The notes beneath the pieces were generated by a model. That model searched no databases and had not been told where the DNA came from. It saw only the letters and a program-made list of their open reading frames with translations. Shown one piece after another: positions 3,138-19,600 of a stretch of 52,904 bases of DNA. This DNA comes from Deltaproteobacteria bacterium (GTDB lineage: Bacteria; UBA10199; JACPAL01). The translations under genes were made by a program, and so were the position numbers. The stretch is from the NCBI GenBank assembly GCA_016180855.1, contig JACPAL010000005.1:1-52904 (forward strand). Direction: 5' to 3'. Each line of letters begins with the position of its first letter. The stretch's first letter is position 1.

Positions 3138-3139
3138 GC

Positions 3140-4570
3140 ATGGAGGAGAGAGGGGAAATTCTTCTGGTGGACGATGAGGAGTCTCTGATTCATGCCTTCG
3201 AGAAGCTGGCTCGTCGCAACCAGTTTCGCTTAAGTGTCGCAAGGAACGGTCTTGATGCGCTTGAAAAGCTTGCAAGCAATACGGTCAGTGTGGTCCTGCT
3301 GGATCTCAACTCGTCCGGTCTCGACGGGTTGCAGATCCTTGATTATATCAAAAAGAACCATTTGTCGACGGAGGTGATCATGATGACCGGCCGTGGCTCC
3401 ATTGAGACGGCCGTCTCCTCTCTAAAGAGCGGCGCCTATGATTACCTCCTGAAACCGTTTGATGATCTGGATCATGTGGTGAACACACTGATCAAGGCCC
3501 AGGAAAAGGCAGAACTGGTGCGGCGCCTAAAGACATTTGAAACAGCCGAATCTTCGGAAAATGGATTTGATACACTGGTCGGCCAAAGTCAGAAGATGAA
3601 AGATGTTTTTGACCTGGTGGTGAGTGTTGCTCCCAGCGAGTCAACTGTCCTGATTATGGGTGAGAGCGGAACCGGGAAGGAACTGGTGGCCCGATCAATT
3701 CACAAGAGAAGCTTCCGAAAAGAACGCCCTTTTATTGTAGTCAACTGTGCCGCCCTTCCGGAAACGCTTTTGGAGAGTGAACTTTTTGGCCATGCGAAGG
3801 GATCTTTTACAGGAGCGGTTGCCGACACAAAGGGACTTTTTGAAGAAGCAGATCATGGGACTCTTTTTCTTGATGAAATCGGCGAGATCCCTCCCTCGAT
3901 GCAGGTCAAGCTGCTCCGTGTCCTCCAGGATGGTGAAATCCGGCGGGTTGGAGGATCGGAGGTCAAGCACGTTGACGTGAGAATCCTTTCGGCAACGAAC
4001 AAGGATCTTTACCAGAAGGTGAAGCAGGGGAGTTTTCGGGAGGATCTCTTTTACCGATTGAATGTGATTACCCTCTATCTTCCGTCCCTCCGGGACAAGA
4101 AAGAAGATATCCCTCTGATGGCCTACCACTTTATGAAGAAGTATGTCGCTAAAATGGGCAAGAAGGTCGGTCAGATCTCTCTGGATGCGATGCAGGCGTT
4201 GCAGGCTTATGACTGGCCTGGGAACGTTCGGGAACTGGAGAATGTCATTGAACGGGCGGTTGTACTGACGGAGGGAGACGGCATTTCGGCGAGGGATCTG
4301 CCTTCCAAGCTTCTCGGAGAGGTTTTTTATGCGCCGGATCCAAAGCACAATGGGGAGGAGGACATTTTACGGCTTCCCTACCACAAGGCCAAGGAGAGGA
4401 CGATCCATCTTTTTAACCGCTCCTACGTCTCCCAGTTGCTGCGTTATGCGGAGGGAAATATTTCTATTGCATCGGTCCAGGCCGGCATGGATCGGAGCAA
4501 CTTTAAAAAAATTATCAAGAAGTGTGAGGTTAGTGTTAGGGAATTCAAAAGAGGAAGGGAGAAGCGATGA
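3140..4570 (+). CDS. NtrC-family sigma-54-dependent response regulator, second copy
   Basis: It begins 2 nt after the previous stop and is co-directional. The 476-aa protein has a receiver with acidic pocket DDE (11-13), predicted phospho-Asp55 and a conserved Lys in LKPF. The AAA+ domain has Walker A GESGTGK (174-180) and Walker B FLDEIGE. The sigma-54 contact loop reads GSFTGA (221-226) instead of GAFTGA, a one-residue change at the second position. A Fis-like helix-turn-helix is at the C-terminus. It is probably phosphorylated by the upstream kinase or by an unlinked one. Its targets are not apparent. Confidence 0.92.
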   Translation: MEERGEILLVDDEESLIHAFEKLARRNQFRLSVARNGLDALEKLASNTVSVVLLDLNSSGLDGLQILDYIKKNHLSTEVIMMTGRGSIETAVSSLKSGAYDYLLKPFDDLDHVVNTLIKAQEKAELVRRLKTFETAESSENGFDTLVGQSQKMKDVFDLVVSVAPSESTVLIMGESGTGKELVARSIHKRSFRKERPFIVVNCAALPETLLESELFGHAKGSFTGAVADTKGLFEEADHGTLFLDEIGEIPPSMQVKLLRVLQDGEIRRVGGSEVKHVDVRILSATNKDLYQKVKQGSFREDLFYRLNVITLYLPSLRDKKEDIPLMAYHFMKKYVAKMGKKVGQISLDAMQALQAYDWPGNVRELENVIERAVVLTEGDGISARDLPSKLLGEVFYAPDPKHNGEEDILRLPYHKAKERTIHLFNRSYVSQLLRYAEGNISIASVQAGMDRSNFKKIIKKCEVSVREFKRGREKR

Positions 4571-5946
4571 CGGGAAAAGTCCTTTTAATTGGGTTTCTTG
4601 AGAAGCCGGACAAGAAGGTAGGCAGCTTTTTGTCCAAGGAAGGATGGGAACTTGTAGAGGAGACACCGGTAGCGATTCTTGGTACAAAACCGGTTCCCTC
4701 CGTGGACGTGGCCCTTCTTTCGTTTGGAAACGAAGAGGTGGATGGGGCGACACAGGCGATTCAAAAACTCCGGTCGGGTGCCCAGGAGATTCCTGTTGTT
4801 TGTCTGACGCGCCTCTCTCATGTGGATCAGGCCGTCATGATCATGAAGAGCGGTGCCTTTGATTGTCTTCAGACGCCGGTTGATATGGGAAAGCTCAGTA
4901 CCGTTCTCAAGAACGCAGCCCAAACGGCCCGCCTCAAGAAAAAGGTGCTTCTTCTCGAGAGCCAGGTCGGATGGGAAGGAAAGTTTGATGATATGGTCGG
5001 CGTTTCTCCGCAGATCCGCGAGATTTTCCAGATGGTCCATACCGTTGCAAAAAGTAATGCGACTGCCTTGATCCTCGGAGAGAGCGGAACCGGGAAAGAG
5101 TTGGTGGCACGGGCGATTCATCGCCACTCGGAACGGTCCAAAAACAAATTTATTGATATCAACTGTGCGGCGATCCCCAGAGAGCTCCTGGAAAACGAGC
5201 TTTTTGGGCACGAACGGGGGGCCTTCACGGGGGCGGACCGTCTTTATGTCGGGAGTTGTGAACGGGCTCATGGTGGAACCCTCTTTCTGGATGAGGTGAG
5301 TGAAATGGACCCATCACTTCAGGTCAAGTTGCTGCGTGTCCTTCAGGAGAGGAGTTTTGTCCGGATTGGCGGAAACCAGAATATTCAGGTCGATATCCGG
5401 GTGATTGCTGCGACCAACAAAAACCTGAAGTCCGAGGTGGAAAAGGGGGCGTTTCGGGAGGATCTTTATTATCGGCTCAATGTCGTCCCGATCATCCTCC
5501 CCCCCTTGCGGGCGCGACGTGAAGACATACCGGTTTTGGCGCAATTTTTCCTTGAGAAGTACGCCAAGGAGAACAGAAAATCATTTAAGGGTTTTACCCC
5601 TGAGGCGATGGAGTGCTTCGTTAATTATGACTGGCCCGGGAATGTGCGGGAGCTCGAGAATAATATTGAGCGCATTGTCGTATTGCATGATGAGCCGAGG
5701 GTGAAACCGGCCCATCTGCCCCGCTTTATATTGAGTGTGGAGAAAAAGGGGGGGCAGGAGCTTGGTGCCTGGGATGCCAATGGGTATCAAAAAATTCTCC
5801 CCCTCCATCTGGTGGAACAGTACGCAATTGAGTCTGCGATTGAACGTTGTCGCGGAGATCTGCTTGCTGCCGCACGCAAACTGGGGATTGGTCAGGCGAC
5901 GATGTATCGAAAAGTGAAACGATACGGTATCAAAATGGCGAGCTAG
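4567..5946 (+). CDS. sigma-54-dependent activator with degenerate receiver domain
   Basis: It overlaps the preceding gene by 4 nt (ATGA). The 459-aa product keeps an intact AAA+ domain (GESGTGKE, GAFTGA, FLDEVSEMD) and a Fis-type helix-turn-helix. The N-terminal 120 residues have the length and pattern of a receiver, but the acidic pocket is missing, the acceptor position reads LLSFGNE without Asp, and the usual KP motif is TP. It is therefore likely a pseudo-receiver controlled by something other than phosphorylation. Third regulator of the operon; no obvious terminator follows. Confidence 0.9.
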   Translation: MTGKVLLIGFLEKPDKKVGSFLSKEGWELVEETPVAILGTKPVPSVDVALLSFGNEEVDGATQAIQKLRSGAQEIPVVCLTRLSHVDQAVMIMKSGAFDCLQTPVDMGKLSTVLKNAAQTARLKKKVLLLESQVGWEGKFDDMVGVSPQIREIFQMVHTVAKSNATALILGESGTGKELVARAIHRHSERSKNKFIDINCAAIPRELLENELFGHERGAFTGADRLYVGSCERAHGGTLFLDEVSEMDPSLQVKLLRVLQERSFVRIGGNQNIQVDIRVIAATNKNLKSEVEKGAFREDLYYRLNVVPIILPPLRARREDIPVLAQFFLEKYAKENRKSFKGFTPEAMECFVNYDWPGNVRELENNIERIVVLHDEPRVKPAHLPRFILSVEKKGGQELGAWDANGYQKILPLHLVEQYAIESAIERCRGDLLAAARKLGIGQATMYRKVKRYGIKMAS

Positions 5947-7650: not shown

Positions 7651-8999
7651 AGAAAACAGATTCCCTTTCTCCAGGAAGTTATGAAAATTTTGTTTCTCAG
7701 CTTGCCGATCGGGAATACTTCGGCCAAAAACTGGGGTTAGAGCGCATTCAAAGGCTCCTTGATCAGCTTGGAAACCCGGAGAAGAGATTTCCCTCTATTC
7801 ATATCGCCGGTACCAACGGCAAAGGTTCCACCGCGGCGATGATCGCCACCATCCTTAAAGAAGCCGGATATCGGGTCGGCCTTTATACCTCGCCGCATCT
7901 GATCGATTTTTGTGAGAGGATCCGCATTCTCTCTCCTTCCATAACTCACCCCCAGCCCCTCTCTTACATTAAGAGAGGGGAGAGCAATCCCCCCATACAA
8001 CCTGGTCAAGTCCTCCACTACGCCCGTCTTATCAAGGAAGCGGAAGAGGAGCCGCTTACCTTTTTTGAACTTGCGACGGCGATCGGGTTTTTGCATTTCG
8101 CGACTGAGGGCGGGTATCCACCGGAGGAGGGTAAGGAACCTGTTGATATCGCCGTTATCGAGGTCGGGATGGGGGGACGACTCGATGCAACGAACGTTAT
8201 TACACCACTTGTCTCGGTGATCACAACGATTGGATTGGATCACACCCAATATCTTGGGGATTCGATTGAAAAGATTGCCTTTGAGAAGGCCGGGATCATC
8301 AAGCCGGGGGTGCCGGTGGTGGTTGGGGATTTGCCGGAGGGGGCCGCAGAGGTGCTGCGAACAATAATATCCCCCCACCGAGATCCCCACGGTCATCAAG
8401 AGGCCCCCCTTGGTTTAAGGGGGGCGAAGATTATCCCGGCGCTGTTTGAGGGGGGATACAAGATTGGTCTTTCAGGCTCCCACCAACAACAAAACGCCGC
8501 TGTGGCCATGGCGGTTATTGCTGAATTAAGGAGACAAGGCTGGTCCATCTCCGATGCCGCCGTTTCCGAAGGGCTTGCCAACATCGACTGGCCGGGCCGT
8601 CTTCAAACGATTCAGGAAGAGCCATGGATCTTGATCGATGGAGCCCACAATCGGGAGGCGATGGAGACCGTCCGGCGGTATCTCGAGCAGAGCCTTCAAG
8701 GGCGACGACTAAAAGTCTTATTTACCGCGATGGCCGATAAAGATATTTCAGGAATGTTGGGCGAGATAGGGTCGGTCGCTTCGGAGATCGTTGTGACCGA
8801 ACTCCCCATGAAGAGGGCCGCCAGCTCCGATGAGCTTTTACGTTTGGTAAAAGAGAATGGCATGGAAGGTCAGTTCATAAGTCCCCCCGAAAAAGCTTTC
8901 CAATTGATGAGGGAATCCCTTAAAGAGGATGAGGTGTTGCTGGCAACGGGCTCCTTTTATCTGGTGGGAGAGCTTCTCCGATGCTTGTTAGATCCTTAA
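7647..8999 (+). CDS. folC: bifunctional folylpolyglutamate synthase / dihydrofolate synthase
   Basis: The product (450 aa, GTG start overlapping the previous stop) adds glutamate to folates, and in bifunctional members first makes dihydrofolate. Visible Mur-ligase features are the P-loop region HIAGTNGKGSTAAMI, the SPHLIDFCERIRI segment, EVGMGGRLDATNV, TTIGLDHTQYLG, the lysine segment FEKAGIIKPGVP and the C-terminal DGAHN. Two stretches look foreign to the family, around residues 98-121 and 241-271. Both coincide with palindromic repeat DNA that stays in frame. The protein is accordingly longer than I expect for FolC. It overlaps the next gene by 19 nt. Confidence 0.93.
   Translation: MKKTDSLSPGSYENFVSQLADREYFGQKLGLERIQRLLDQLGNPEKRFPSIHIAGTNGKGSTAAMIATILKEAGYRVGLYTSPHLIDFCERIRILSPSITHPQPLSYIKRGESNPPIQPGQVLHYARLIKEAEEEPLTFFELATAIGFLHFATEGGYPPEEGKEPVDIAVIEVGMGGRLDATNVITPLVSVITTIGLDHTQYLGDSIEKIAFEKAGIIKPGVPVVVGDLPEGAAEVLRTIISPHRDPHGHQEAPLGLRGAKIIPALFEGGYKIGLSGSHQQQNAAVAMAVIAELRRQGWSISDAAVSEGLANIDWPGRLQTIQEEPWILIDGAHNREAMETVRRYLEQSLQGRRLKVLFTAMADKDISGMLGEIGSVASEIVVTELPMKRAASSDELLRLVKENGMEGQFISPPEKAFQLMRESLKEDEVLLATGSFYLVGELLRCLLDP
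7956..7994. repeat. palindromic repeat inserted in frame in folC (first)
   Basis: A perfect 10-bp stem, CCCCTCTCTT (7956-7965) and AAGAGAGGGG (7971-7980), closes a 5-nt loop inside folC. ATCCCCCC follows at 7987-7994, an end motif shared with the other inserts in this window. The encoded residues (SYIKRGESNPP) resemble nothing in FolC and fall in a variable part between the substrate loops. No stop is introduced. Confidence 0.65.
8368..8458. repeat. 91-bp palindromic element with terminal inverted repeats, in frame in folC (second)
   Basis: The element is bounded by TATCCCCCC (8368-8376) and its perfect inverse GGGGGGATA (8450-8458). Inside is a perfect 9-bp hairpin, GCCCCCCTT (8403-8411) / AAGGGGGGC (8417-8425). 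FolC reads through it without a stop, giving an extra segment between VLRTII and GLSGSHQQQNAAV. It resembles a very small non-coding mobile element. Confidence 0.7.
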
Positions 9000-9727
9000 G
9001 TCTTATCGTCTGTCTCTTTTCATTCTCCCTTTCAGCGGATGATGGGCGTTTGATCATCGAAAAGATGGTTCAGAGGATACGTGGCCACGCCAATATCGCG
9101 GAATACGAGATGACGATTCAGCGTCCCTCCTGGACACGCACAATCCGCCTCAAGGCGTGGGATGATCGTGCTCACAGCCGCGTTTTTGTGCGTCTCCTGG
9201 AGCCTCCGAAGGATGCGGGGATCTCTTTCTTGAGGCTTGATTACAATCTCTGGAACTATCTCCCGAAGGTGGAAAAGGTTATGAAGATTCCGCCCTCGAT
9301 GATGCTCCAACCCTGGATGGGGAGTGATTTTTCGAACGATGATCTTGTTAAGGAGTCAAGTTACATCGATGATTATGAGCATCAGGTGGTGGGTCACGAG
9401 ATGAAGGAGGGGGAGAAGGTCTTTAAAATCGAGCTCATTCCAAAACTGCATGCGCCGGTCGTCTGGGGAAAGGTCGTTTTCTGGGTCCGTGAAAAAGATG
9501 ATCTGCCGATGGAGCAGCATTTTTTAGATGAGAGGGGAAGGCTGATCAAGGTCTTGACCTTTAAGGATTTCAAAATCATGGATGGTATTCTTCACCCCCT
9601 CCTCTGGGAGATGGAAAATAAGCAGAAAGAGGGACAGAAGACGATGATTCGGCTCGTAAATGTTGACTTTGACCCTTTGCCTCCGATTCCCACGTCGGTG
9701 TTTACGGAACAGAATTTGCGACGCTAA
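8981..9727 (+). CDS. LolA-like outer membrane lipoprotein-sorting family protein
   Basis: A 248-aa protein with a signal peptide (MLVRSLSLIVCLFSFSLSA) followed by a LolA/LppX-type lipid-binding fold (PF17131-like). The signature stretches are YEMTIQRPSWTRTIRLKAW, a PPKDAGISFLR segment, LWNYLPKVEKVMKIPPSMM, a WMGSDFSNDDLV motif and a late LPMEQHFLDERGRL. It should act in the periplasm and bind a lipid or lipidated cargo. Family members often neighbour MacB/LolCDE-type ABC transporters; here that transporter lies 2.5 kb downstream, beyond the minus-strand cassette. It overlaps folC by 19 nt and meets the convergent protease gene with a 4-nt overlap. Confidence 0.85.
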   Translation: MLVRSLSLIVCLFSFSLSADDGRLIIEKMVQRIRGHANIAEYEMTIQRPSWTRTIRLKAWDDRAHSRVFVRLLEPPKDAGISFLRLDYNLWNYLPKVEKVMKIPPSMMLQPWMGSDFSNDDLVKESSYIDDYEHQVVGHEMKEGEKVFKIELIPKLHAPVVWGKVVFWVREKDDLPMEQHFLDERGRLIKVLTFKDFKIMDGILHPLLWEMENKQKEGQKTMIRLVNVDFDPLPPIPTSVFTEQNLRR

Positions 9728-11010
9728 CCTACGTTCTCCTTTCTCAACTCCTGCCAGGCATAATAACCATCAAGATTGAGGATCGGCAGGAGATTTATTA
9801 AACAGAGGAGATAGGAACCGGCTGTGAAGAGCCACAGAACCAATTGGGACTCCGATCCTTCGAACAGGAATAAGAGGCAAGAGGAGAGTCCTCCCAGGAT
9901 GAGATGGGTGTACGGGCCGGCGAGTGAGACAACAATCCTCTGCCACCGACTTGCGAGCCACATGTCGGAGGTATCCACGAAAAGGATCGGGCTGATCCAG
10001 TTCCAACCGACTCCTATTCCGAGAATCCGTCGACCAAATGCCTTCGTCGTAAAGGCGTGCCCTCCTTCATGAATGGGGCCGGACAGTAGAAGAAGCACGA
10101 TGAGAGGTAGAGTGATGCCTGGAATTTCATCGAGATTCATTTGGGACCATTTCAGGGGGAGGTCTTTAAGAAAGAGTAGAAGACCCGATAGGGTGAGGAG
10201 GCCGATCAGTAACTGCCCACTCCTGGAGAAGAGGGGACGGATGAACCGGTAGAGACGGGAGATGAGGGGATCAACATTTCGGAGCATGAGTCTCCATTCA
10301 AACAGATGTTGCAGTCCTTGTAAAATCCTTTGGCCCCACGAGGGGATCAGAAGGAACGATGCCCTTGTCGTGCGACTCTTGGCAAATCCTGAGGCGACCA
10401 GCCCTGAGATAGTCTCTGCAATTGAATGTGGCGCAAAAAGTCCGAACTCTTTCAAGTAAAGAAGGGTTAGATCTTTCAGATTTTTATGGCCGTCGAGATT
10501 TTGCCAAATAAATATCCCTTGGGAGGAGAGTCGGAAGTAGGTCCCATCGCCTCTATTGGCAAGGATCGTCATCACGGTTCCATCTTCCGAAGTTGTTGTT
10601 TGTTCCTCAATGCCGGTGGTTCGAATCGGTCGATCGCGAAGACTCAAGATTTCAAACATTCCGAGGCGAAGTTCGCGACTCTCGCCGACCACCTTCATGA
10701 AATCCTCCCGTTTTAATTCCAGGAGTTCGGTTTCCCCTAACGCACGAACGGTCGCATTTCGGGTAGATTCTGTGAGAAGGGCGGTCTCTCCAAAGAGGGC
10801 ACCTGCTTCCAGGATAGCCAGTTGCCTTTTCCGCCCATTGTCTTTCTGAATCACTTCAACCCGACCGGTTTTGACAAGAAAACAGGAGCTGGCCACTTCC
10901 CCCTCACGAATAATCGTGTCGCCTTGTTTGATGGAAAGGCAATGGATCTTTTGAGCCAGAAGGTGCAGGCGGTCGACTTTAAGGGAGCCAAAAGGGGTGG
11001 CCCTCTTCAA
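9724..11010 (-). CDS. fused cNMP-binding / PqqD-like / M50 site-2 protease membrane protein
   Basis: 428 aa from TTG 11010. Residues about 8-130 form a cyclic-nucleotide-binding fold (QGDTIIREGE, GALFGETALLTESTRNATVRA). Residues about 133-212 match PqqD-type domains, the RiPP recognition fold (GTYFRLSSQGIFIWQNLDGHKNLKDL). Residues 264-428 form a multi-pass M50 peptidase with the zinc motif HEGGH (314-318), AGPYTHL and the distal NLDGYY (412-417). The domain mix suggests a membrane protease that recognises a peptide leader and may respond to a nucleotide. It directly follows the 66-aa precursor-like peptide gene. Codons upstream in the same frame (VKTEQLLVIDFL) look like natural cNMP-domain sequence, so the start may lie further upstream at an unusual codon. 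Confidence 0.85.
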   Translation of the reverse strand: MKRATPFGSLKVDRLHLLAQKIHCLSIKQGDTIIREGEVASSCFLVKTGRVEVIQKDNGRKRQLAILEAGALFGETALLTESTRNATVRALGETELLELKREDFMKVVGESRELRLGMFEILSLRDRPIRTTGIEEQTTTSEDGTVMTILANRGDGTYFRLSSQGIFIWQNLDGHKNLKDLTLLYLKEFGLFAPHSIAETISGLVASGFAKSRTTRASFLLIPSWGQRILQGLQHLFEWRLMLRNVDPLISRLYRFIRPLFSRSGQLLIGLLTLSGLLLFLKDLPLKWSQMNLDEIPGITLPLIVLLLLSGPIHEGGHAFTTKAFGRRILGIGVGWNWISPILFVDTSDMWLASRWQRIVVSLAGPYTHLILGGLSSCLLFLFEGSESQLVLWLFTAGSYLLCLINLLPILNLDGYYAWQELRKENVG

Positions 11011-11039
11011 GAAATCGATGACAAGGAGCTGCTCTGTCT

Positions 11040-11240
11040 TTACATTCCCTTGCTGATTTGTGATTTTAATTCCTCGTCAGGTCGGTTCCAGTCGATCTTT
11101 CGGAGTGTCGTCAATTCCTCGCTATTTAGCTTGACGCCTGATTTCTGGATCGTCCCTTCAGGATCTTTGCGGAATTCCACCCTGAATTTCTGGTCGTTCA
11201 TCCACTTGTCGATCAGTTTGCCGATATCTTGGTAGCTCAT
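11040..11240 (-). CDS. 66-aa RiPP precursor-like peptide (Os1348/NHLP-leader-like)
   Basis: ATG 11240 is preceded by a strong AAAGGAG. The peptide resembles Nif11/NHLP-type leaders: a helical start, FRVEFRKDPEG, then LNSEELTTLRKI, a spacing seen in Os1348-like precursors. The short tail after it is charged, lacks Cys and has a Trp at residue 51; another Trp is at 13. It lies between a prenyl-synthase-like gene, which it overlaps by 83 nt, and a protease carrying a PqqD-like domain. That context supports a modified secreted peptide. ComX of Bacillus is a Trp-prenylated peptide encoded next to a prenyl synthase (ComQ); the parallel here is inference. Confidence 0.7.
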   Translation of the reverse strand: MSYQDIGKLIDKWMNDQKFRVEFRKDPEGTIQKSGVKLNSEELTTLRKIDWNRPDEELKSQISKGM

Positions 11241-12186
11241 GGGTTCTGTTCTCCTTTTTGAAAAGTGAGACGTTACCTATATAGGAAACAAGCCTCTCTT
11301 GATAGCTTTTTTTTGGGTGGGCCGCCGCGAGACTTTTTTTCGCCCGTTCACAATAGAGCTCAATTAAGAAGGCTGTGAGACGGCCGATCCCCTTGGCAAA
11401 GAGAAGGGACCTGGCCTTTTCAAGAGGTCCGAACAAAACCCTCTTTTCGGCCTCGGAACATCTTTGAAGGCAAAGGGCGATCGGGAGTGTCCTCGTACCG
11501 TTCCTCAAGTCCCGACTGATGGGGGCCTGAAACAGGTCATAGAAGTCGGTGGCGAGTTGGGTCGCGGTTCCGAGATTTCGTCCCATCTCTTCATAGGAAC
11601 TGATTTGGTCTTCTGCTCCTCCGGCCAGTAATGCGGCGATTGAGGCGAGGGTCGCGATACCACTGCTCTTGGCCCTCACGGAATCTTCGACCTCTTGTGT
11701 CTGGACATTTGTTTTCCCCGTCATTGCGAGTTCCCTTTGCTGCCCGGTGGCGGCCTCCAACAGTCCCTTTGCAAATCGGAGCTGGATCTTTATGCGGAGC
11801 TCTTCGGTCGTCTTGAGCTCTGCGATCAAAATCTGGGGGAGTGCTGAGAGAAAGAGTGAGGAGCCGAGTTGGAGTTCTGGCGTTCTGTGGTTCGGCCAGT
11901 GAGCTATCGCATCCCCATCGGCGATGTCATCGATAATATCCATTCCCAGGAAGAGGAACTTCCCCAGTGCGGTCAGCGGAAGCGCCTCCTCTTCACGTCC
12001 GGCGATTCCGCCATAGACGAGGAGGGGAATATCGACATACGGAGAGTTTTCCCCTGTCGGGAACTGATCGAGAAGCGAATGCAGAAGAGAGCGCTGATCC
12101 TGGGAGGAGATAGAGATATCGATGAATGATCGTGCCGGATCACTCTCGTCTTGGAGAGGCAGGGGAGCAAAAGCGACTCGTGACAT
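11158..12186 (-). CDS. polyprenyl / isoprenyl diphosphate synthase-like protein (ComQ-like context)
   Basis: 342 aa with an all-helical isoprenyl synthase pattern. The first Asp-rich motif DDIAD (86-90) is intact. The second is reduced but keeps the Q-x3-D-x2-D pattern (QLATDFYD, 210-217), as in peptide-prenylating ComQ proteins and some lipid synthases. RAKSSGIATLASIAALLAGG fits the family lysine helix. The last ~28 residues are read from DNA that also encodes the start of the 66-aa peptide. No good ribosome site precedes ATG 12186, only 50 nt from the divergent ABC ATPase gene. Substrate could be a free prenyl chain or the neighbouring peptide; the sequence does not decide. Confidence 0.8.
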   Translation of the reverse strand: MSRVAFAPLPLQDESDPARSFIDISISSQDQRSLLHSLLDQFPTGENSPYVDIPLLVYGGIAGREEEALPLTALGKFLFLGMDIIDDIADGDAIAHWPNHRTPELQLGSSLFLSALPQILIAELKTTEELRIKIQLRFAKGLLEAATGQQRELAMTGKTNVQTQEVEDSVRAKSSGIATLASIAALLAGGAEDQISSYEEMGRNLGTATQLATDFYDLFQAPISRDLRNGTRTLPIALCLQRCSEAEKRVLFGPLEKARSLLFAKGIGRLTAFLIELYCERAKKSLAAAHPKKSYQERLVSYIGNVSLFKKENRTHELPRYRQTDRQVDERPEIQGGIPQRS

Positions 12187-12236: not shown

Positions 12237-12911
12237 ATGGAAAATCAGATCCTACTCGAGGCGGTTGAGAAAGTTTATCGGACCAATGGCCTGCCGGTTA
12301 AGGCGCTCACGAATGTCTCTTTGACGTTTGCCTCCGGTGAGTTTGCTGTCCTGGCCGGACCTTCGGGCTCAGGAAAATCGACCCTTTTGAATCTCATCGG
12401 GGCGCTTGATCGTCCAACGTCAGGCGGCGTCAAAGTGGCCGGGAGAGATCTTTTACAGATGAATCTCCGGCAGCTCTCGGAATTTCGGCTTCGAAAGATT
12501 GGATTTGTCTTTCAGTCCTACAATCTGATTCCTGTCTTAACGGCGATTGAGAATGTTGAATACATCCTGCTCCTTCAGGGAATCGATCCAAAGGAGAGAC
12601 GTGAGAGGGCCATGGCCCTCCTGGAACGGGTCGGTCTTCTAGACCAGGTTGGCAAGCGACCGGGTGAAATGAGTGGGGGGCAGCAACAGCGAGTTGCCGT
12701 GGCCCGGGCGCTTGTGAGTCGCCCCGAGTTGATTTTGGCCGATGAGCCAACGGCGAATCTCGACTCACAGACAGGGGCAACGTTGATTGATCTCTTTCGA
12801 GAGTTGAACGAGCAATTTCAAACAACCTTCCTCTTTGCCTCACACGATCCGATGGTCATTGAGCGGGCCCGGCGTGTGGTCCGGCTTAAAGATGGTCGGA
12901 TTGAGTCATGA
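12237..12911 (+). CDS. ABC transporter ATPase, LolD/MacB type
   Basis: 224 aa with Walker A GPSGSGKST, Q-loop FVFQSYNLIP, signature MSGGQQQRVAVARAL, Walker B LILADEPTANLD and switch His in ASHDP. This subfamily powers MacB/LolCDE-like mechanotransmission transporters that act on lipoproteins, peptides or lipids from the periplasmic side. AAGGA precedes ATG 12237. It overlaps the first permease by 4 nt (ATGA). Divergent from the prenyl-synthase cassette with only 50 bp between. Confidence 0.95.
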   Translation: MENQILLEAVEKVYRTNGLPVKALTNVSLTFASGEFAVLAGPSGSGKSTLLNLIGALDRPTSGGVKVAGRDLLQMNLRQLSEFRLRKIGFVFQSYNLIPVLTAIENVEYILLLQGIDPKERRERAMALLERVGLLDQVGKRPGEMSGGQQQRVAVARALVSRPELILADEPTANLDSQTGATLIDLFRELNEQFQTTFLFASHDPMVIERARRVVRLKDGRIES

Positions 12912-14131
12912 GGCTTCTTTTGAAATTGGCGTTTCGAAACATCTTCCGTCATAAGAAGCGTTCTCTCATTACGATGACGGCGATTGCCGTTGGTTTGGGG
13001 GCCCTTATTTTTATGAGGAGCTTTATGCATGGGGCCCATCTCCAGATGGTTCGTAATGTCACGCGAACACTGACCAGTGATGCCCAAATTGTTCCTAAGG
13101 CGCTTGAAAATTTTTACAATACGAATGGGGCGATCGAAGATCCCGAGCCGATCCGTCGTATTCTCCGTTCGGACCCCCGAATCCTGGCATTTTCTGAAAG
13201 GATTATCGGCGGAGGGATGATTGCCTCTGAGAAAAAATCGATGGCGACGTTTATCATCGGTTTTGATCCGGCGCAGGAGGAAAAAATAGGTACCCGCCGG
13301 GAGGTTGTTTCTGGTCGGGCCCTGACGGAAGCGGACGAACAAGGTCTCATTTTGGGCGAAAAGATGCGTCAGATTCTGGGAGCCCAAATCGGAGAGTCGA
13401 TTGTGCTGACGGCGCAAGACTTCTATGGATCCCTCACGGGCGAGAGATTTACCGTTCTGGGGACCTTTCAGACAGGAAATGATCAGGTGGACAACAGTAT
13501 GGTGATCCTCTTGAAGCAATCCGCCCAAAGACTCCTTTCTTTTGAGCAACGCGTTTCGAAATTCGCCCTCCGGATAGATCCCCGTTATTTAACCGATGAT
13601 GTTGTGCACGATTTGAGGGGCAAGATTGTAGATCCAAATCTCAAGGTGGTGACCTGGCAGAATCTGATTCCGATGATCGCGCAGATGATCCAGTTTCAGG
13701 ACGGGATGAGCTTTATCATTATGGCGATTGTTCTGTCCGTTGTCGCCACCGGGATTCTCAATACACTGATGATGTCTATTATGGAGAGAATTCGTGAGTT
13801 TGGTCTCATGATTGCTCTGGGAACAAAGCCGTCACAGATTATTCTTCTCATTCTTCTTGAGTCCTTTTTCTTGAGTATCTTTGGTGCCCTCGGTGGGCTT
13901 TTTCTGGGATCCGGACTTATCTTTTACTTCGGCCATATCGGGATTGACCTGACACGGTTTGTTTCCGCCTTGTCCAATCTCATGATTGGATCACAGGTCT
14001 TCCCCCACTTTGACCTGCGCTATTCTCTGATTTTCCTGCTCGTTGTCCTTGTCAGTAATCTCCTTGTTTCCCTCTATCCGGCCTGGAGGGCCGGGAAGTT
14101 AGCGCCCTTGGAGGCGATGAGACAGGTATGA
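12908..14131 (+). CDS. ABC transporter permease, FtsX/LolE-like, first of a tandem pair
   Basis: 407 aa. One N-terminal transmembrane helix after FRNIFRHKKRSL, a large periplasmic MacB_PCD-like domain (about residues 40-270), then three C-terminal helices of the FtsX fold, with MERIREFGLMIALG before the second. It is clearly paralogous to the next gene: same length and the same motifs (YNTNG, LGEKMRQILG). Together with the ATPase it should form an inner-membrane complex. Overlaps both neighbours by 4 nt. Confidence 0.92.
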   Translation: MRLLLKLAFRNIFRHKKRSLITMTAIAVGLGALIFMRSFMHGAHLQMVRNVTRTLTSDAQIVPKALENFYNTNGAIEDPEPIRRILRSDPRILAFSERIIGGGMIASEKKSMATFIIGFDPAQEEKIGTRREVVSGRALTEADEQGLILGEKMRQILGAQIGESIVLTAQDFYGSLTGERFTVLGTFQTGNDQVDNSMVILLKQSAQRLLSFEQRVSKFALRIDPRYLTDDVVHDLRGKIVDPNLKVVTWQNLIPMIAQMIQFQDGMSFIIMAIVLSVVATGILNTLMMSIMERIREFGLMIALGTKPSQIILLILLESFFLSIFGALGGLFLGSGLIFYFGHIGIDLTRFVSALSNLMIGSQVFPHFDLRYSLIFLLVVLVSNLLVSLYPAWRAGKLAPLEAMRQV

Positions 14132-15351
14132 CCTCTATTCTAATGCTGGCCTACAGAAATATTCTCCGGCACAAAAAGAGGTCATTCATCATTGTTGCTG
14201 CCATTGCGATCGGTCTTGGGGCGATTCTCTTCTTGCGTGGTTTTGCCTCCGGGGCTCAGAGGCAGATGATTGATAACATCGTTTCGGTCATTACAAGCGA
14301 AATCTCAATTGTTCATAAATCGATGGAAAACATCTATAACACCAATGGAACGATAAAAGATCCCGAATCGGTTCGGCGTCTCCTCCGTGAAGACCCGCGT
14401 GTTGCCGGTTTTGCCGAGGAGGTCTTTGGTTCCGGTATCATTTCGTCTCCGCAGGCCTCCATCATGACCTTTGTATCGGGGGTTGATCCGGGGCAGGAAA
14501 CGGCGATTGGAAGTCGTTTCCCGATCGTTTCAGGGCGGCTTTATGCCTCGGAGGAGGAGCACAGTGTTGTTATAGGTGAAAAGATGCGGAAGATTCTTGG
14601 GGTTGAGTTGGGTGAGAAGGTTGTCGTAACGGTTCAAGATCTGGGCGGAACGCTGACGGGTGAGTCGTTTACGCTCGTGGGGACGCTCGAGATTGGCAAT
14701 GATCAGCTTGACAGTGGAACCGTTGTTCTTTCTTTGGGGGCAGGAAAGAGACTGCTCGGAATGGGAGATCGACTTTCCAAATTTGCCGTGAAGGCTCACG
14801 ATCGGCATGAGATTCCGGCGCTTGTGAAAAGTTTGAAAGAGAGGCTTACCGGCACCGATCTCATTGTGATGACGTGGGACGAACTGATTCCGATGCTCTC
14901 ACAGATGATGCGATTTCAGGATGGAATGATTTTCATTCTCCTTTTAATTGTTCTTTCCGTCGTAACGGCTGGTGTTCTGAATACGCTCCTCATGTCGATT
15001 ATTGAGAGAACAAGGGAATTTGGACTCATGTTGGCACTAGGGGTAAAACCGTTTCAGGTTGTTTTGCTACTGATTGTCGAAACGCTCCTTTTAAGTCTTA
15101 TGGGGGTTGTCGTCGGGATTTCGCTCGGTACGCTGGCGATCCTCTATTTTGGTCATGTTGGCATTGATCTGACCCGGTTTTTGTCGACATTCTCCAATCT
15201 CCTGGTTGGTTCCCACGTTTATCCGCGTGTTGACTGGAGCTATGTTGGGATTTTTGTGATGGTTGTGTTGGTTGCCAATATTTTTATCGCCTTTTACCCG
15301 GCTTGGAGGGCCTCAAGGCTCCAGCCTGTCGTAGCGATGAGGCAGGTGTAA
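14128..15351 (+). CDS. ABC transporter permease, FtsX/LolE-like, second of a tandem pair
   Basis: 407 aa with the same architecture as the preceding permease: N-terminal helix after YRNILRHKKRSF, periplasmic domain containing YNTNGTIKDPE and GEKMRKILG, and three C-terminal helices around IERTREFGLMLALG. The pair likely forms a LolC/LolE-like heterodimer and arose by tandem duplication. The substrate is unknown; a LolA-like protein upstream and an outer-membrane barrel downstream suggest transport of a lipid-type or lipidated molecule towards the outer membrane. Confidence 0.92.
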   Translation: MTSILMLAYRNILRHKKRSFIIVAAIAIGLGAILFLRGFASGAQRQMIDNIVSVITSEISIVHKSMENIYNTNGTIKDPESVRRLLREDPRVAGFAEEVFGSGIISSPQASIMTFVSGVDPGQETAIGSRFPIVSGRLYASEEEHSVVIGEKMRKILGVELGEKVVVTVQDLGGTLTGESFTLVGTLEIGNDQLDSGTVVLSLGAGKRLLGMGDRLSKFAVKAHDRHEIPALVKSLKERLTGTDLIVMTWDELIPMLSQMMRFQDGMIFILLLIVLSVVTAGVLNTLLMSIIERTREFGLMLALGVKPFQVVLLLIVETLLLSLMGVVVGISLGTLAILYFGHVGIDLTRFLSTFSNLLVGSHVYPRVDWSYVGIFVMVVLVANIFIAFYPAWRASRLQPVVAMRQV

Positions 15352-15353
15352 TT

Positions 15354-16514
15354 TTGGAGAGATTCCTCCGACACTTTCCCCTGCTGGTGCTGTTATTTTA
15401 TTTTAGTACACCTGCTCTTGCCCTCTCTCTGGTTGAAAGAAGCAAGATCTCACTTGATCTCGGCGGCTACTACAAAAACCTCTTTTTTACCTCCAAACGC
15501 CAGGCAACGGGGGATTTCTATCTTGCCGACTTAAACCGGTTTCGGCTCGAGTGGGATGCCCATTTTCTGGAAAAATTTTCAGCCAATGTGGTCTGGGATC
15601 AGGAACTCATCGGGGGTAATTATATTGCTACGGAGGAGTTTGCGACACGGCAGGCCAATAGAAATATCGCCACTCCTGATCTGGAGTACCAACTTCATAG
15701 GAGCAACCATCTTTTTTATGGGCAGAATTTTTACCGCGCCTATTTGCAATATAAGTCTTCTTGGATGACGGTGACGGTCGGCCGTCAGCGGGTTGATTGG
15801 GGGGTGATGCGGATCAATCCGATCACCGATCTGTTCATCCGGCCGCCGATCTTTGATGTCGAGAAGGACGAGGTGATAGCGCCAGTTGCTGCTAATCTCC
15901 AGATCCCGATCGGTTCCACCTGGAAGCTGAATCCGGTTTATACGGTTCAGTCCGACTTTGACCGTTCGCGCACCGGTTTGCGAGTTACAAAAACGATCTG
16001 GCGATTTGATGTTTCGGCGTTGGGGGGAAGATTTCTAAGGGATACAATGGCCGGCTTTGATTTTGATGGGGACATTGCCGACATCGGTGTCCGGGGGGCG
16101 CTCACACAGGACTGGACTGGGGCCGGGAATAATTTTATCCAGGCGGCAGTCGGTCTGGACTATGGATTTCCAAACACCCTCTATCTTGCGGCGGAATATT
16201 TCTTCAACGGACAAGGGACGAACAACCGGTTAACAGCGCTTCCGTTCCCTGCAACAGCCCCCTTTTTTCAAACGGCTCATCGGCATTTTTTTGGAGCTGA
16301 GGCGCGTTACGAGTTGACGCCGTTGTGGAAGATCCTCCTCATTTCACAGACGGATATTGTCGGTAAAAGTATCGTTGGTAATCTGGAGACGACCTATTCC
16401 CTCTTTTCCTGGATGGACCTCAATGGGGGGGCGCTCTTTCCGGTTGGTCGTGATGCAGGAGAGTTTGGGGCAGTACCGAATTTGTATTATCTGCAGGCCC
16501 AGTGCTTTTTCTGA
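15354..16514 (+). CDS. outer membrane beta-barrel protein (DUF1302/porin-like)
   Basis: I choose TTG 15354, which gives a clean signal peptide (MERFLRHFPLLVLLFYFSTPALA) 2 nt after the permease stop; a longer frame from TTG 15303 lies inside that gene. The 386-aa product alternates polar and hydrophobic residues throughout, has VGRQRVDWGVMRINP (typical of DUF1302-like barrels) and ends in Phe, as BAM substrates do. It is the last gene of the ABC transporter operon and may be its outer-membrane partner. Confidence 0.82.
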   Translation: MERFLRHFPLLVLLFYFSTPALALSLVERSKISLDLGGYYKNLFFTSKRQATGDFYLADLNRFRLEWDAHFLEKFSANVVWDQELIGGNYIATEEFATRQANRNIATPDLEYQLHRSNHLFYGQNFYRAYLQYKSSWMTVTVGRQRVDWGVMRINPITDLFIRPPIFDVEKDEVIAPVAANLQIPIGSTWKLNPVYTVQSDFDRSRTGLRVTKTIWRFDVSALGGRFLRDTMAGFDFDGDIADIGVRGALTQDWTGAGNNFIQAAVGLDYGFPNTLYLAAEYFFNGQGTNNRLTALPFPATAPFFQTAHRHFFGAEARYELTPLWKILLISQTDIVGKSIVGNLETTYSLFSWMDLNGGALFPVGRDAGEFGAVPNLYYLQAQCFF

Positions 16515-16525
16515 TCGCCTCTGTT

Positions 16526-16627
16526 GGGACTGTTGAAAAATGCCATCTGCTGCGTTCCCCTCGTCGCCGGCTCCTCGGGGTGCCTTGCAGCTGGGCATTT
16601 TTGAACAGTCCCCAAAAGCCATTTTTC
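16526..16627. repeat. interspersed inverted-repeat element, copy with a 36-bp internal deletion
   Basis: GGGACTGTTGAAAAATGCC (16526-16544) is inverted, with one mismatch, at 16594-16612, and a flank shared with the other copy runs up to the ATG at 16628. In reverse orientation it matches the element at 32488-32628, but lacks 36 bp lying between two GAGGAGCC direct repeats there. It occupies the whole leader of the protease gene. Confidence 0.8.
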
Positions 16628-19600
16628 ATGCGACGTCGCTTGCGTTGGTTTGTAGTGTTGTGGTTGGTCTTTGCAGGCGCTCTTTCATTTAGCCCAAGTC
16701 GAATTGCCTTGGGATCAGCATCCACATCTCCCGGGGTAGTGAGTCAGAAGACCTTTCTTGGTTCTCTCAAGGAGAATGCGACAAAGGTCCTAAAGAGATT
16801 AAGGACAAATCCAGCCCCAAGCCGGGAAGTGAAGAGACGGTCTCTTGTCAAAAAGACGTTGCCCAAACAATACACGGTGTCAGACGAGACACCTGGCTTT
16901 GTATCCGGACAATTAATCATAAGTCTTAAAGACTGCGAAAAGTCATTTCTGGATCCTGGAATTCAGTCAAAAATCAATGGGCAGTATGGTTTTAGGAATG
17001 AACGGAAATTTCTATCCAAGATTACAGAAGGTGGGAAGACTCGAGGAGGCTTTCAGAAGGCAAAATTGAGCTGTATTCGTACGATCGATCTGGAGGAAGA
17101 GACGGATTTGAGTAAGGTGATCGATACCATAAGAGCCTTGCCAGAGGTTAAATATGTCCAACCGAATTACCGTTATTTTCCGGATGCGATCCCAACAGAC
17201 CCTCAATATGATCTCCAATGGTCCCATCAAATAACCGAGGCAGAGGCGGGATGGGATTTTCAGACGGGATCCCATGAAGTGGTTGTGGCCGTCATTGATA
17301 ATGAAATTGGATGGACTCACGAAGAGCTTGTCTCTCGGATTTGGGCAAATCCATCAGATGTGGCCGACGGTATTGATAATGATGGGAACGGATACGTTGA
17401 TGATGTTCGGGGATGGGATTTTAGTGGTGGTGATAATGATCCGATGCCGGATCCCGGACAAGATATTCACGGGACAAGTGTTGCCAGTATTATTGGAGCG
17501 GCCGCCAATAATGGAAGGGGTATTGTAGGGGTCATGTGGGATGTTTCCCTCATGCCGCTTCGCATCTCATATACCACGGAATCAGTTACAGAAGCACTCT
17601 ACTACGCCCTGCTCCAGGGAGCGGACGTTGTTAATATGAGTTTTGGGAACTATGAAATCGGACGGTATGGTACGGATACCACAGTTCATGAGGCGATCCA
17701 GGAGGGGACAACAGCGGGTATTGTTTATGTAGCCACGGCTGGAAATGATTCGATCGAGGCACTGAGATACCCCGCCGCCTTATCCGAAGTGCTTAGTGTT
17801 ACGGCAACCGATGAGGAAGACCAACGCGCTTCCTTCTCAAATTATGGTGTTTGGTGCGATATAGCGGCCCCCGGAGAGAACATTCGTGCGGCCTCTCTCT
17901 ATCCGAGCCTTGGTTCTGCCTACGATCGAGACCAGGATGGCACCTCCTTTGCGGCCCCCTATGTTTCTGGCTTGGCCGGTCTTCTTAAGCTTCAGTTTCC
18001 GGATCTTGATGCGGCGGGAATTCGCGACCGGATTCTCTACACGGCTGATCCAATCGACACAGATCAGCCGATCGGGATGGGTCGTGTTAACATGAGAAGG
18101 GCGCTGGATCCTTCTGTTTCAATTGAGCCATTCGCTATGATTTGGGCGCCATCCGGAAACTCGCGTTACGATACCAGTGAAACAATAACTGTCGTCGGCA
18201 CTGTTCGGGGCGATTCCTACTTCGTCCGGTATCGCCCTCTATCTTCAACCGGAGGTGAATGGACCACTTTGGTATCGGGGACGGGAAACCATGATAGAGA
18301 GGAGTTAGCCGTCTTCGATCTGGAAGAGATTGAGCCAGGTCGATATTCATTACAGCTTCGTTCTGTTCAGGGAAGTAATGAGGCAATCGTTGAGCGTGAA
18401 CTTCTCGTAGGTCATTTTCTGACAGGCTGGAGACAGCCCATTTCATTGAGACCCTTTGATTCCAGCTGGGAGCTTCTCCATCTAAATTTTGGTGACATGG
18501 ATCATGATGGCAAGACGGAGACTCTGGTAACAGGAACGGTGCCGGCCCATCTCCTTGATTTCGAAGGATCTGAGATGCCTGGATGGCCAGTTGAACTCGC
18601 CGTGGCTGGGACATCAGGTCAGGGGGCAATCGGAGACGTTGATAATGATGGAGATCTCGAAGCAGTCGTTCAGGCAACAAGTACAATTTTCATATTAAAC
18701 CTGGATGGATCAGTTGTTTCAACTCGTAGTTTAGCGATGGGAACCTCGGGGATAGCAACCCCGGCTCCTATCCTCACAGACTGGGATCAAGATGGAGACC
18801 TCGAAATTATTACCGTTGAGTCAACCCACATGGATGCTTTGGGCTACCGAATGGTTGTTGCTCACCATGACGATTTTATCGGGACAATTCTTTTTGACAG
18901 GATCGGGAATGGCCAGCGTCTCTTAACTCCCGCCGTTCTGGCCGATTTTGACGGAGATGACAGCGTCGATGTTGGTCTACGGCCAAGACGACAGGTCTTC
19001 AGCTCTCCCAACATGGAAACCTTGGTCGTTTCACACGAGGGCTCCACTTTGTTTTCCCGTCTCCTTGATACACTGGAGACGCCCGTTTCAGGCATAGCGC
19101 CGGCTGGTTTTACATTTGGTGACGAGTCTCGCGCATGGATTCTTTATACCCACAGTCCCGAAGAGATTCGACTCGTCAGAGTTGATACGGGGGACTTCTA
19201 CCAATGGAACCTTCAGCAGCTTCTCGGTCTCTCGTTGACTTCGTGGGAGGATAATTATCCTCAGGTTGCCGGAGGTGACATTGACGGGGGCGGAGATTTT
19301 GAGATCGCAATTTCCTATGACGACAAAGTTGCGGTGCTCAAAAAAGGTATCTTGAACGGAACCACGCCGGAAACGATGGGCTCTCTTTTAGAGGGCTGGC
19401 CGGTTGAGCTCGATGGAGAAGCGTTCTCTCCTCTCCTGGTCGATCTCAATAATGACAACCTGCCGGAAATTATCGTTGCCTCGCAGGGACGTGCTGTTTA
19501 TGCCTGGCACTCGGATGGAAGTGCCGTGTCAGGATTTCCTCTTCTAACAACCTACCCCGTTGCAACAACCCCTGTCGTGACGGATCTCAACGGCGATGGT

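What the first reader, a model, noticed from the sequence alone, without database searches (positions are those of the whole stretch)
9724..12186. Candidate new modified-peptide system: prenyl synthase, RiPP-like precursor, PqqD-M50 protease
Three adjacent minus-strand genes encode a ComQ-like isoprenyl synthase (DDIAD plus Q-x3-D-x2-D), a 66-aa NHLP/Os1348-leader-like peptide with two Trp and no Cys, and a membrane protein fusing a cNMP-binding domain, a PqqD-like recognition domain and an HEGGH M50 protease. PqqD-like domains are known to bind RiPP leaders, and ComQ prenylates a Trp of ComX. Together they suggest a peptide made, prenylated and cut at the membrane, perhaps under cyclic-nucleotide control. 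I know of no described pathway with this exact set; that and the prenylation are inference.
Basis: partly seen in the sequence, partly recalled or inferred. Interest (0 to 1): 0.88.

Follow-up and report, generated by a model that had tools for sequence, protein, structure and literature searches.

The report
ComQ-like peptide prenylation cassette, NHLP precursor
Uncultured Gram-negative bacteria of two phyla carry a gene set that very probably makes a small ribosomal peptide, has a relative of the Bacillus pheromone enzyme ComQ attach an isoprenoid lipid to it, and in about half the loci also has a membrane protease to cut it; the enzyme-peptide pairing is well supported here, the chemistry is not shown.

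Summary
The three minus-strand genes are real. The 'synthase' is not a housekeeping lipid enzyme. Against 18 housekeeping isoprenyl synthases and 4 annotated ComQs it shows the ComQ pattern: donor motif DDxxD kept, isopentenyl-diphosphate-binding residues lost, first Asp of the second motif lost. The 66-aa peptide is an Os1348-family NHLP protein. In the class, 11 of 46 genomes have the synthase and exactly the same 11 have the peptide; 3 of 341 Elusimicrobiota-type genomes also have the pair, so all 15 synthase loci have a peptide beside them (26 peptides). The cNMP-PqqD-M50 protein sits at 8 of the 15 loci, and once with a peptide and no synthase.

Co-encoded peptide paralogues are 74% identical, but their last 1-5 residues, neutral and mostly hydrophobic, are 5% identical: conserved leader, hypervariable C-terminus. 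Trp51 is kept in 20 of 21 peptides of the main clade but not in the second clade, which lacks the protease.

Best reading: a new clade of trans-IDS-like peptide prenyltransferase acting on an NHLP precursor, with the M50 protein as RRE-type processing protease. PalQ/PalX and ComQ/ComX are precedents, so this is a new variant of a known kind. Prenylation, its site, cleavage and cyclic-nucleotide control are untested.

The parts
11158..12186 (-). ComQ-like (trans-IDS-like) prenyltransferase, PF00348, 342-aa ORF; the last ~28 codons overlap the peptide gene
   Evidence: Pfam 8.2e-12; motif table against housekeeping synthases and ComQ; model with trans-IDS fold
11917..11931 (-). FARM DDIAD (D86, D87, D90), allylic-donor site; an extra Asp (D83) 3 residues upstream is shared with ComQ only
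11536..11559 (-). pseudo-SARM Q210-LAT-D214-FY-D217: Gln and second Asp kept, first Asp replaced by Thr
   Evidence: ComQ precedent PMC5331326
11040..11240 (-). 66-aa Os1348-family NHLP precursor peptide
   Evidence: NF038399 1.4e-15; in exactly the same 11 of 46 class genomes as the synthase; purifying selection; Foldseek top hits Os1348, then SonA and a proteusin precursor
11251..11256 (-). ribosome-binding site AAGGAG of the peptide gene
   Evidence: sequence
11088..11090 (-). Trp51 codon in the conserved (I/V/M)DW motif; inferred acceptor
   Evidence: W in 19 of 20 main-clade peptides plus G005; Os1348 has IDT here
11043..11048 (-). variable C-terminal tail (Gly-Met here) after ...SK
9724..11010 (-). 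cNMP-binding / PqqD-like / M50 membrane protein; start codon uncertain
   Evidence: daptide_HExxH model 7e-34, below its cut-off
10687..10935 (-). cNMP-binding domain, phosphate-binding cassette FGETALLTESTRNATV retained
   Evidence: PF00027 1.2e-22
10441..10566 (-). PqqD-like (RRE-type) domain
   Evidence: PF05402 1.2e-4, 0.6 bit under the gathering cut-off
10057..10071 (-). HEGGH zinc motif of the M50 domain
9766..9777 (-). NLDG second M50 motif
8981..9727 (+). LolA-like outer-membrane lipoprotein-sorting protein, flanking; participation uncertain
   Evidence: PF17131 2.4e-50; distribution
12237..15351 (+). LolD-like ATPase and two LolC/E-like permeases, flanking; participation uncertain

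Best explanation
A RiPP-type cassette. The ribosome makes a ~66-residue Os1348/NHLP precursor whose helical body is the leader. The ComQ-like enzyme uses its FARM to bind an allylic isoprenyl diphosphate (geranyl or farnesyl most likely) and, having lost the isopentenyl-diphosphate site, transfers the prenyl group to the peptide, most likely to Trp51 in the conserved loop before the last helix. The lipid would bring the peptide to the membrane. There the PqqD-like domain of the M50 protein binds the leader and the intramembrane protease cuts it off, releasing a lipidated C-terminal peptide ending in a hypervariable 1-5 residue tail; the cNMP domain may gate this. Shown: gene content, linkage, motif pattern, leader/tail conservation pattern. 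Inferred: prenylation, acceptor site, cleavage, regulation, export, biological role.
For: Motifs: all 12 synthases compared and all 4 ComQs lack the GKRxRP residues as a set and the RRG pair that all 18 housekeeping enzymes have; all carry an extra Asp three residues before the FARM, lose the first SARM Asp, keep Gln and the second SARM Asp, and have 12-13 instead of 17-19 residues before the next motif. Literature: ComQ's pseudo-SARM keeps only the second Asp, and the normal DDxx(D) SARM is described as unsuitable for Trp prenylation (PMC5331326); all characterised trans-IDS-like prenyltransferases act on Trp (PMC13290415). Peptide beside the synthase at 15 of 15 loci, and in the same 11 of 46 class genomes. 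Paralogue bodies 74% identical, tails 5%, no identical tails in 18 pairs; 46 tail residues contain no D, E, K, R, H, N, Q or C, against 46% D/E/K/R/H/N/Q in the body. W51 is W in 20 of 21, while Os1348 has T. M50 protein at 8 loci and once with a peptide alone; best model match is the daptide RRE-M50 family, whose member MpaP removes the leader RRE-dependently (PMC10036551). Peptide model matches mostly RiPP precursors in PDB.
Against: W51 is Leu in one paralogue (G060c), and the second clade (5 loci) has no Trp aligned there and no M50. W51 is 14-18 residues from the C-terminus and sits in a conserved, not variable, stretch, unlike ComX and PalX. The most variable part is the tail, which has no nucleophilic side chain in common. 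In the fused synthase-peptide model the tail is not placed (pLDDT under 50) and coordinates could not be read, so there is no docking evidence. Two M50 copies have HDxxH instead of HExxH. The tree has long branches and cannot show that ComQ and this clade share an exclusive ancestor.
Confidence: 0.55

Rival explanations
1. The acceptor is not Trp51 but the short hydrophobic C-terminal tail (backbone, terminus or a tail residue) that the NHLP body feeds into the synthase active site, as SonA feeds its C-terminal residues into SonM and PalX its terminal Trp into PalQ; Trp51 is structural.
For: The tail is the hypervariable, charge-free part; a short C-terminal ending is the one thing common to both clades (second clade ends LFGM, FFGM or LLGM; the G037 synthase itself ends MLFGM); SonA precursors are among the few structural neighbours of the peptide model.
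Against: No shared nucleophile in the tails; every characterised trans-IDS-like transferase uses Trp (PMC13290415); near-invariant W51 needs another reason.
Confidence: 0.2
2. The synthase makes a small isoprenoid and the peptide is a partner or regulatory subunit, not a substrate.
For: PF00348 membership; the Os1348 body is a folded stable dimer in the one solved case (PMC7726476); most of the peptide is conserved.
Against: Loss of the IPP-binding residues; multicopy peptides (up to four) with hypervariable tails are hard to explain for a subunit.
Confidence: 0.13
3. The peptide and M50 protein form one RiPP pathway with a modification from elsewhere, and the synthase is a frequent passenger.
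For: G061:C6 has peptide plus M50 without a synthase on that contig.
Against: Peptide and synthase occur in exactly the same 11 of 46 genomes and the peptide is found nowhere else in the class; the five second-clade loci have synthase plus peptide without M50.
Confidence: 0.06
4. Family 2B encapsulin (cNMP-bearing shell plus polyprenyl transferase cargo).
For: Weak hits of the cNMP domain (NF041163, 46 bits) and synthase (NF041169, 43 bits) to encapsulin models.
Against: Scores far below cut-offs (400 and 450); the cNMP protein is an M50 membrane protein, not a shell.
Confidence: 0.01

Closest known systems
PalX/PalQ of Paenibacillus alvei (PMC10853753)
   Same: NHLP-type precursor encoded next to a Trp prenyltransferase of the isoprenoid-synthase superfamily
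   Different: PalX ends in its acceptor Trp; its three-gene cluster has a histidine kinase and no M50/PqqD protein; Bacillota; PalQ was annotated as a terpene synthase and forms a distinct cluster, whereas this enzyme is recognised by the polyprenyl synthetase model
ComQ/ComX of Bacillus
   Same: Same set of motif losses and gains in the enzyme (all tested but the GKxT Lys); small peptide gene directly after the enzyme gene
   Different: No detectable homology of ComX with this peptide (hhalign probability 1%); ComX Trp is near the C-terminus; comQXPA has the ComP/ComA receptor pair, absent here
Os1348 of Pseudomonas sp. Os17 (PMC7726476, PDB 6LK7)
   Same: Same peptide family (NF038399 above cut-off) and probably fold; one gene of its cluster is a predicted peptidase, with transporters downstream
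   Different: Its cluster has a GNAT acetyltransferase and a different peptidase type, and none of its modification genes named in the passages read is a prenyltransferase; Thr instead of Trp at the aligned position
Daptide protease MpaP/DapP (PMC10036551) and YydH/LiaK epipeptide proteases
   Same: M50-type RiPP maturation protease; in the daptide family an RRE domain is fused to it
   Different: 117.6 bits against a cut-off of 300; cNMP domain added; none of the daptide oxidative decarboxylase, aminotransferase or methyltransferase genes next to it, and no C-terminal Thr core
SonA/SonM split borosins
   Same: Helical precursor body with the modified residues at the C-terminal tail (my knowledge of borosins)
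   Different: N-methyltransferase, no isoprenoid chemistry; similarity seen only as weak Foldseek hits
Canonical trans-isoprenyl diphosphate synthases
   Same: Fold, FARM, K of KT motif, Gln before SARM
   Different: IPP-site residues and first SARM Asp missing

Membership tests
trans-IDS-like peptide prenyltransferases (ComQ type) | FARM DDxxD kept | tested here: met
   12 of 12
trans-IDS-like peptide prenyltransferases (ComQ type) | pseudo-SARM: first Asp lost, Gln and second Asp kept | tested here: met
   12 of 12, T or S replaces D
trans-IDS-like peptide prenyltransferases (ComQ type) | IPP-binding GKRxRP and RRG residues lost, as in ComQ | tested here: met
trans-IDS-like peptide prenyltransferases (ComQ type) | separate from housekeeping synthases on a tree | tested here: met
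   one clade at 100/99; housekeeping one clade at 100/98; exclusive kinship with ComQ not resolvable
trans-IDS-like peptide prenyltransferases (ComQ type) | adjacent small peptide gene | tested here: met
   15 of 15 loci
trans-IDS-like peptide prenyltransferases (ComQ type) | acceptor Trp in the peptide | tested here: inconclusive
   W51 in 20 of 21 of main clade; not aligned in second clade
trans-IDS-like peptide prenyltransferases (ComQ type) | prenylation activity | not testable with these tools
   needs mass spectrometry
ComQ/ComX quorum-sensing system | ComX-like peptide plus ComP/ComA receptor genes | tested here: not met
   no ComX homology; none of the genes identified within ~3 kb is a receptor kinase; the nearest histidine kinase found is ~8 kb away at 593-1768
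PalQ/PalX | NHLP leader and terminal acceptor Trp | tested here: not met
   NHLP met, terminal Trp not
Os1348-family NHLP RiPP precursor (NF038399) | score above the curated cut-off | tested here: met
   57.1 vs 40 bits; the second-clade and G005 members that were scanned fall below it or give no hit
RiPP precursor | conserved leader with hypervariable C-terminal part | tested here: met
   74% vs 5% identity between co-encoded paralogues
Daptide | DapP above cut-off and Dmp-forming enzymes | tested here: not met
   117.6 vs 300 bits; no such genes among the flanking ones scanned
Canonical isoprenyl diphosphate synthase | GKRxRP, RRG, both DDxxD motifs | tested here: not met
Family 2B encapsulin system | shell protein and cargo models above cut-off | tested here: not met

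The most novel reading that the evidence does not exclude
A RiPP class in which an isoprenyl-synthase-derived enzyme lipidates an NHLP precursor and the product is only a very short hypervariable peptide (1-5 residues, or the ~16 residues from Trp51 on), cut at the membrane by a cyclic-nucleotide-gated PqqD-M50 protease and handed to a LolCDE/LolA-like route, i.e. a prenylated counterpart of lipoprotein sorting in Gram-negative bacteria.
Probability: 0.12. Interest if true: 0.87.

Novelty: new variant of a known kind. Interest (0 to 1): 0.62.

Why it matters
Trp prenylation by ComQ was described as special to several Bacillus species in 2017 (PMC5331326); PalQ of Paenibacillus and ChrPC have since been added (PMC13290415). 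A clade in two uncultured lineages, with its own precursor family and a linked RRE-type protease, would widen that chemistry, supply new Trp (or non-Trp) prenyltransferases, and make testable how an isoprenyl diphosphate synthase turns into a peptide-modifying enzyme: the residues lost are listed here. The multicopy precursors with hypervariable tails give a ready-made substrate panel.

Tried and rejected
ComX homology of the peptide: rejected. Family 2B encapsulin: rejected on scores and domains. Housekeeping lipid synthase: rejected on motifs and tree. Plasmid origin: no match in PLSDB. Trp13 as acceptor: disfavoured, it lies in the leader helix and is missing from the second clade. Lol-like transporter as an obligate partner: not supported; it brackets or adjoins the genes in G000, G001 and G003, and a more distant LolCE-like permease with an ATPase does in G274, but the same operon occurs without a synthase in G002 and away from it in G004 and G009, and no match at E 1e-20 or better was found in G016, G012, G030, G037 or G061. 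Docking by a fused synthase-peptide model, read through the 83-base overlap with a single four-letter word: the synthase folds well (block pLDDT mostly 86-98) but the tail is not placed and no coordinates are available. The genome-contig scan used only one motif pattern, so its count of 7 loci is a lower bound. ComQ was first queried with a sequence recalled from memory; only the annotated public ComQ records it found were used in the comparison. Literature: no paper in the held library was found that describes this gene set; most subscription papers are missing from it.
Full report
1. Observation. The synthase ORF (11158-12186) matches polyprenyl_synt at 8.2e-12; the middle ORF (11040-11240) matches the NCBIfam Os1348-family NHLP model at 1.4e-15, over its cut-off; the third (9724-11010) carries a cNMP domain (1.2e-22), a PqqD-like stretch (1.2e-4, 0.6 bit under cut-off) and an M50 domain (6.9e-9). 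The peptide has a good ribosome-binding site (AAGGAG, 10 bases before ATG) and overlaps the synthase ORF by 83 bases. Between the window and its nearest relative G001 the peptide has pN 0.14 against pS 0.81, so it is a real gene.

2. Distribution. In the 46 held genomes of the window's class, a profile of the synthase finds a clear group (E below 1e-80) in 11 genomes; a profile of the peptides finds the peptide in exactly those 11 and nowhere else, always beside the synthase. For the main clade the peptides were first found by plain similarity to the window peptide among the ORFs of all fetched loci; the second-clade peptides were weaker at first (E 4e-5 to 1.9, or seen only with a profile) and rest more on position and on the profile. 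The scan of public genomes added two MAGs labelled Elusimicrobia, and a search of their phylum found 3 of 341 genomes with 4 synthases. In all there are 15 synthase loci, each with at least one peptide within about 2 kb, and 26 peptides: four in a row in G016, three in G060 (L074), four at one G061 locus (L077), three in G274. G061 alone has three arrangements: synthase plus four peptides; synthase, M50 and a peptide; and a peptide directly before an M50 gene with no synthase. The synthase of G061:C9 is nested with those of G000/G001 (63% identical to the window's), which suggests that the cassette has moved between phyla. The named records are MAGs titled 'Deltaproteobacteria' and 'Elusimicrobia'; that the window's class is GTDB's UBA10199 is my guess, not tested.

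3. The synthase is ComQ-like. Four annotated ComQ genes, each followed by a ComX gene, were fetched from plasmid records. In one alignment with 18 housekeeping synthases (from the same class and other relatives searched), the 12 synthases of this family and the ComQs share every departure tested bar one: the K, R and R of GKRxRP are gone as a set (one K remains by chance in one sequence), the RR after the FARM is gone as a pair, an Asp sits three residues before the FARM (Leu in all 18 housekeeping enzymes), the first SARM Asp is T/S here and G/N in ComQ, and the segment to the next motif is 12-13 residues instead of 17-19; the exception is the Lys of GKxT, replaced by T/A/S here but kept as K/R in ComQ. 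FARM, the Gln before the SARM and the second SARM Asp are kept. Established knowledge of trans-IDS enzymes says the lost residues bind IPP; ComQ work says the FARM and the second SARM Asp are needed and that a normal SARM does not suit Trp prenylation (PMC5331326). On the tree this family, ComQ and the housekeeping enzymes are three separate groups with strong support; branches are long, so common descent of this family with ComQ is consistent but not proven. The AlphaFold model has the trans-IDS fold, with Ord1, a farnesyltransferase of free Trp (PMC13290415), among the PDB matches.

4. The peptide. The model of the peptide is five helices; of 28 Foldseek matches all but two are RiPP precursors (Os1348 first at probability 0.94, then SonA and a proteusin precursor; E-values are weak for so small a protein). 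Co-encoded paralogues are on average 74% identical over residues 1-63 but 5% over the tail after ...SK, with no two tails alike in 18 pairs. The 20 main-clade tails (GM, IP, Y, WLA, FFS, M, GA, VA, LFV, AFG, LP, PTL, AVPTL, L) contain no charged residue, Asn, Gln, His or Cys, though these make up nearly half of the body. Trp13 is invariant in this clade but is part of the leader; Trp51 is kept in 19 of 20 plus G005, whereas Os1348 has Thr there. In the second clade (G009, G012, G025, G030, G037) the leader core is recognisable, no Trp aligns with Trp51, and all end in (L/F)GM; there a secreted lipoprotein with W-x4-W, and in most copies repeated Cys motifs, sits at the locus instead of the M50 protein, and the G037 synthase itself ends MLFGM.

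5. The M50 protein. It is next to the synthase at 8 of 15 loci; the G005 contig ends too soon to tell. Most copies have two cNMP domains; the window's, G001's and that of G061:C6 appear to have one. HExxH is intact in 7 of the 9 copies linked to peptides, and HDxxH in G001 and G061:C6. Its nearest curated family is the daptide RRE-M50 protease (7e-34, well under cut-off), which removes the leader in daptide biosynthesis (PMC10036551). Pairwise identities of synthase and M50 across eight loci correlate (r 0.75). The phosphate-binding cassette of the cNMP domain looks intact (sequence), but control by a nucleotide is only inference.

6. Neighbours. In the window the three genes lie between a LolA-like gene and a LolD/LolCE-like operon. 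That bracket recurs in G001 and, rearranged, in G003; G274 has a related permease-ATPase pair next door. But the same operon exists without the synthase in G002 and apart from it in G004 and G009, so a Lol-like export route is an attractive but weak inference.

7. Mechanism and verdict. Most likely the ComQ-like enzyme prenylates the precursor, with Trp51 the leading candidate site and the tail the main rival, and the M50 protein, where present, trims it at the membrane. What it works like: ComQ/ComX and PalQ/PalX. What it belongs to: the trans-IDS-like peptide prenyltransferases on every sequence feature tested except a settled acceptor Trp; the activity itself is untested. Novelty: new variant of a known kind.

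Noticed in passing
G000:C5:129565-130746 (L067:8565-9746), outside the window: A second protein with two cNMP domains and a PqqD-like domain but no M50, beside a 1263-aa secreted-looking protein; no convincing NHLP peptide found near it.
   Followed up: partly
L066:8325-10016 (G010): cNMP-cNMP-PqqD-M50 homologue without synthase or peptide; zinc motif degraded to QELGH and the second motif lost.
   Followed up: partly
L062:8577-9926 and L120:7732-9075: M50 copies with HDLGH / HDAAH instead of HExxH, possibly inactive or altered proteases still linked to peptides.
   Followed up: partly
L068:6964-7929, L069:1334-2242, L070:9679-10602, L071:7945-8568, L072:9313-10365: Conserved lipoprotein at second-clade loci with W-x4-W and, in four of five, repeated C-x-DFQCQ-x-FAD...GCC-type motifs; no significant Pfam match in the three copies scanned.
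   Followed up: partly
L069:21-1100 and L068:7883-8896: Synthases that themselves end in MLFGM / KLFGA, like the ending of the neighbouring peptides.
   Followed up: no
window 16502-20311: 1269-aa subtilase with FG-GAP and DUF4215 repeats.
   Followed up: no
window 593-5946: Histidine kinase followed by three sigma-54 response regulators in a row.
   Followed up: no
L104 (CP031730.1): A Stenotrophomonas plasmid record carries a Bacillus-type comQ-comX-histidine kinase-regulator set whose gene layout closely resembles the Lysinibacillus plasmid record L103; possible transfer or contaminated record.
   Followed up: no
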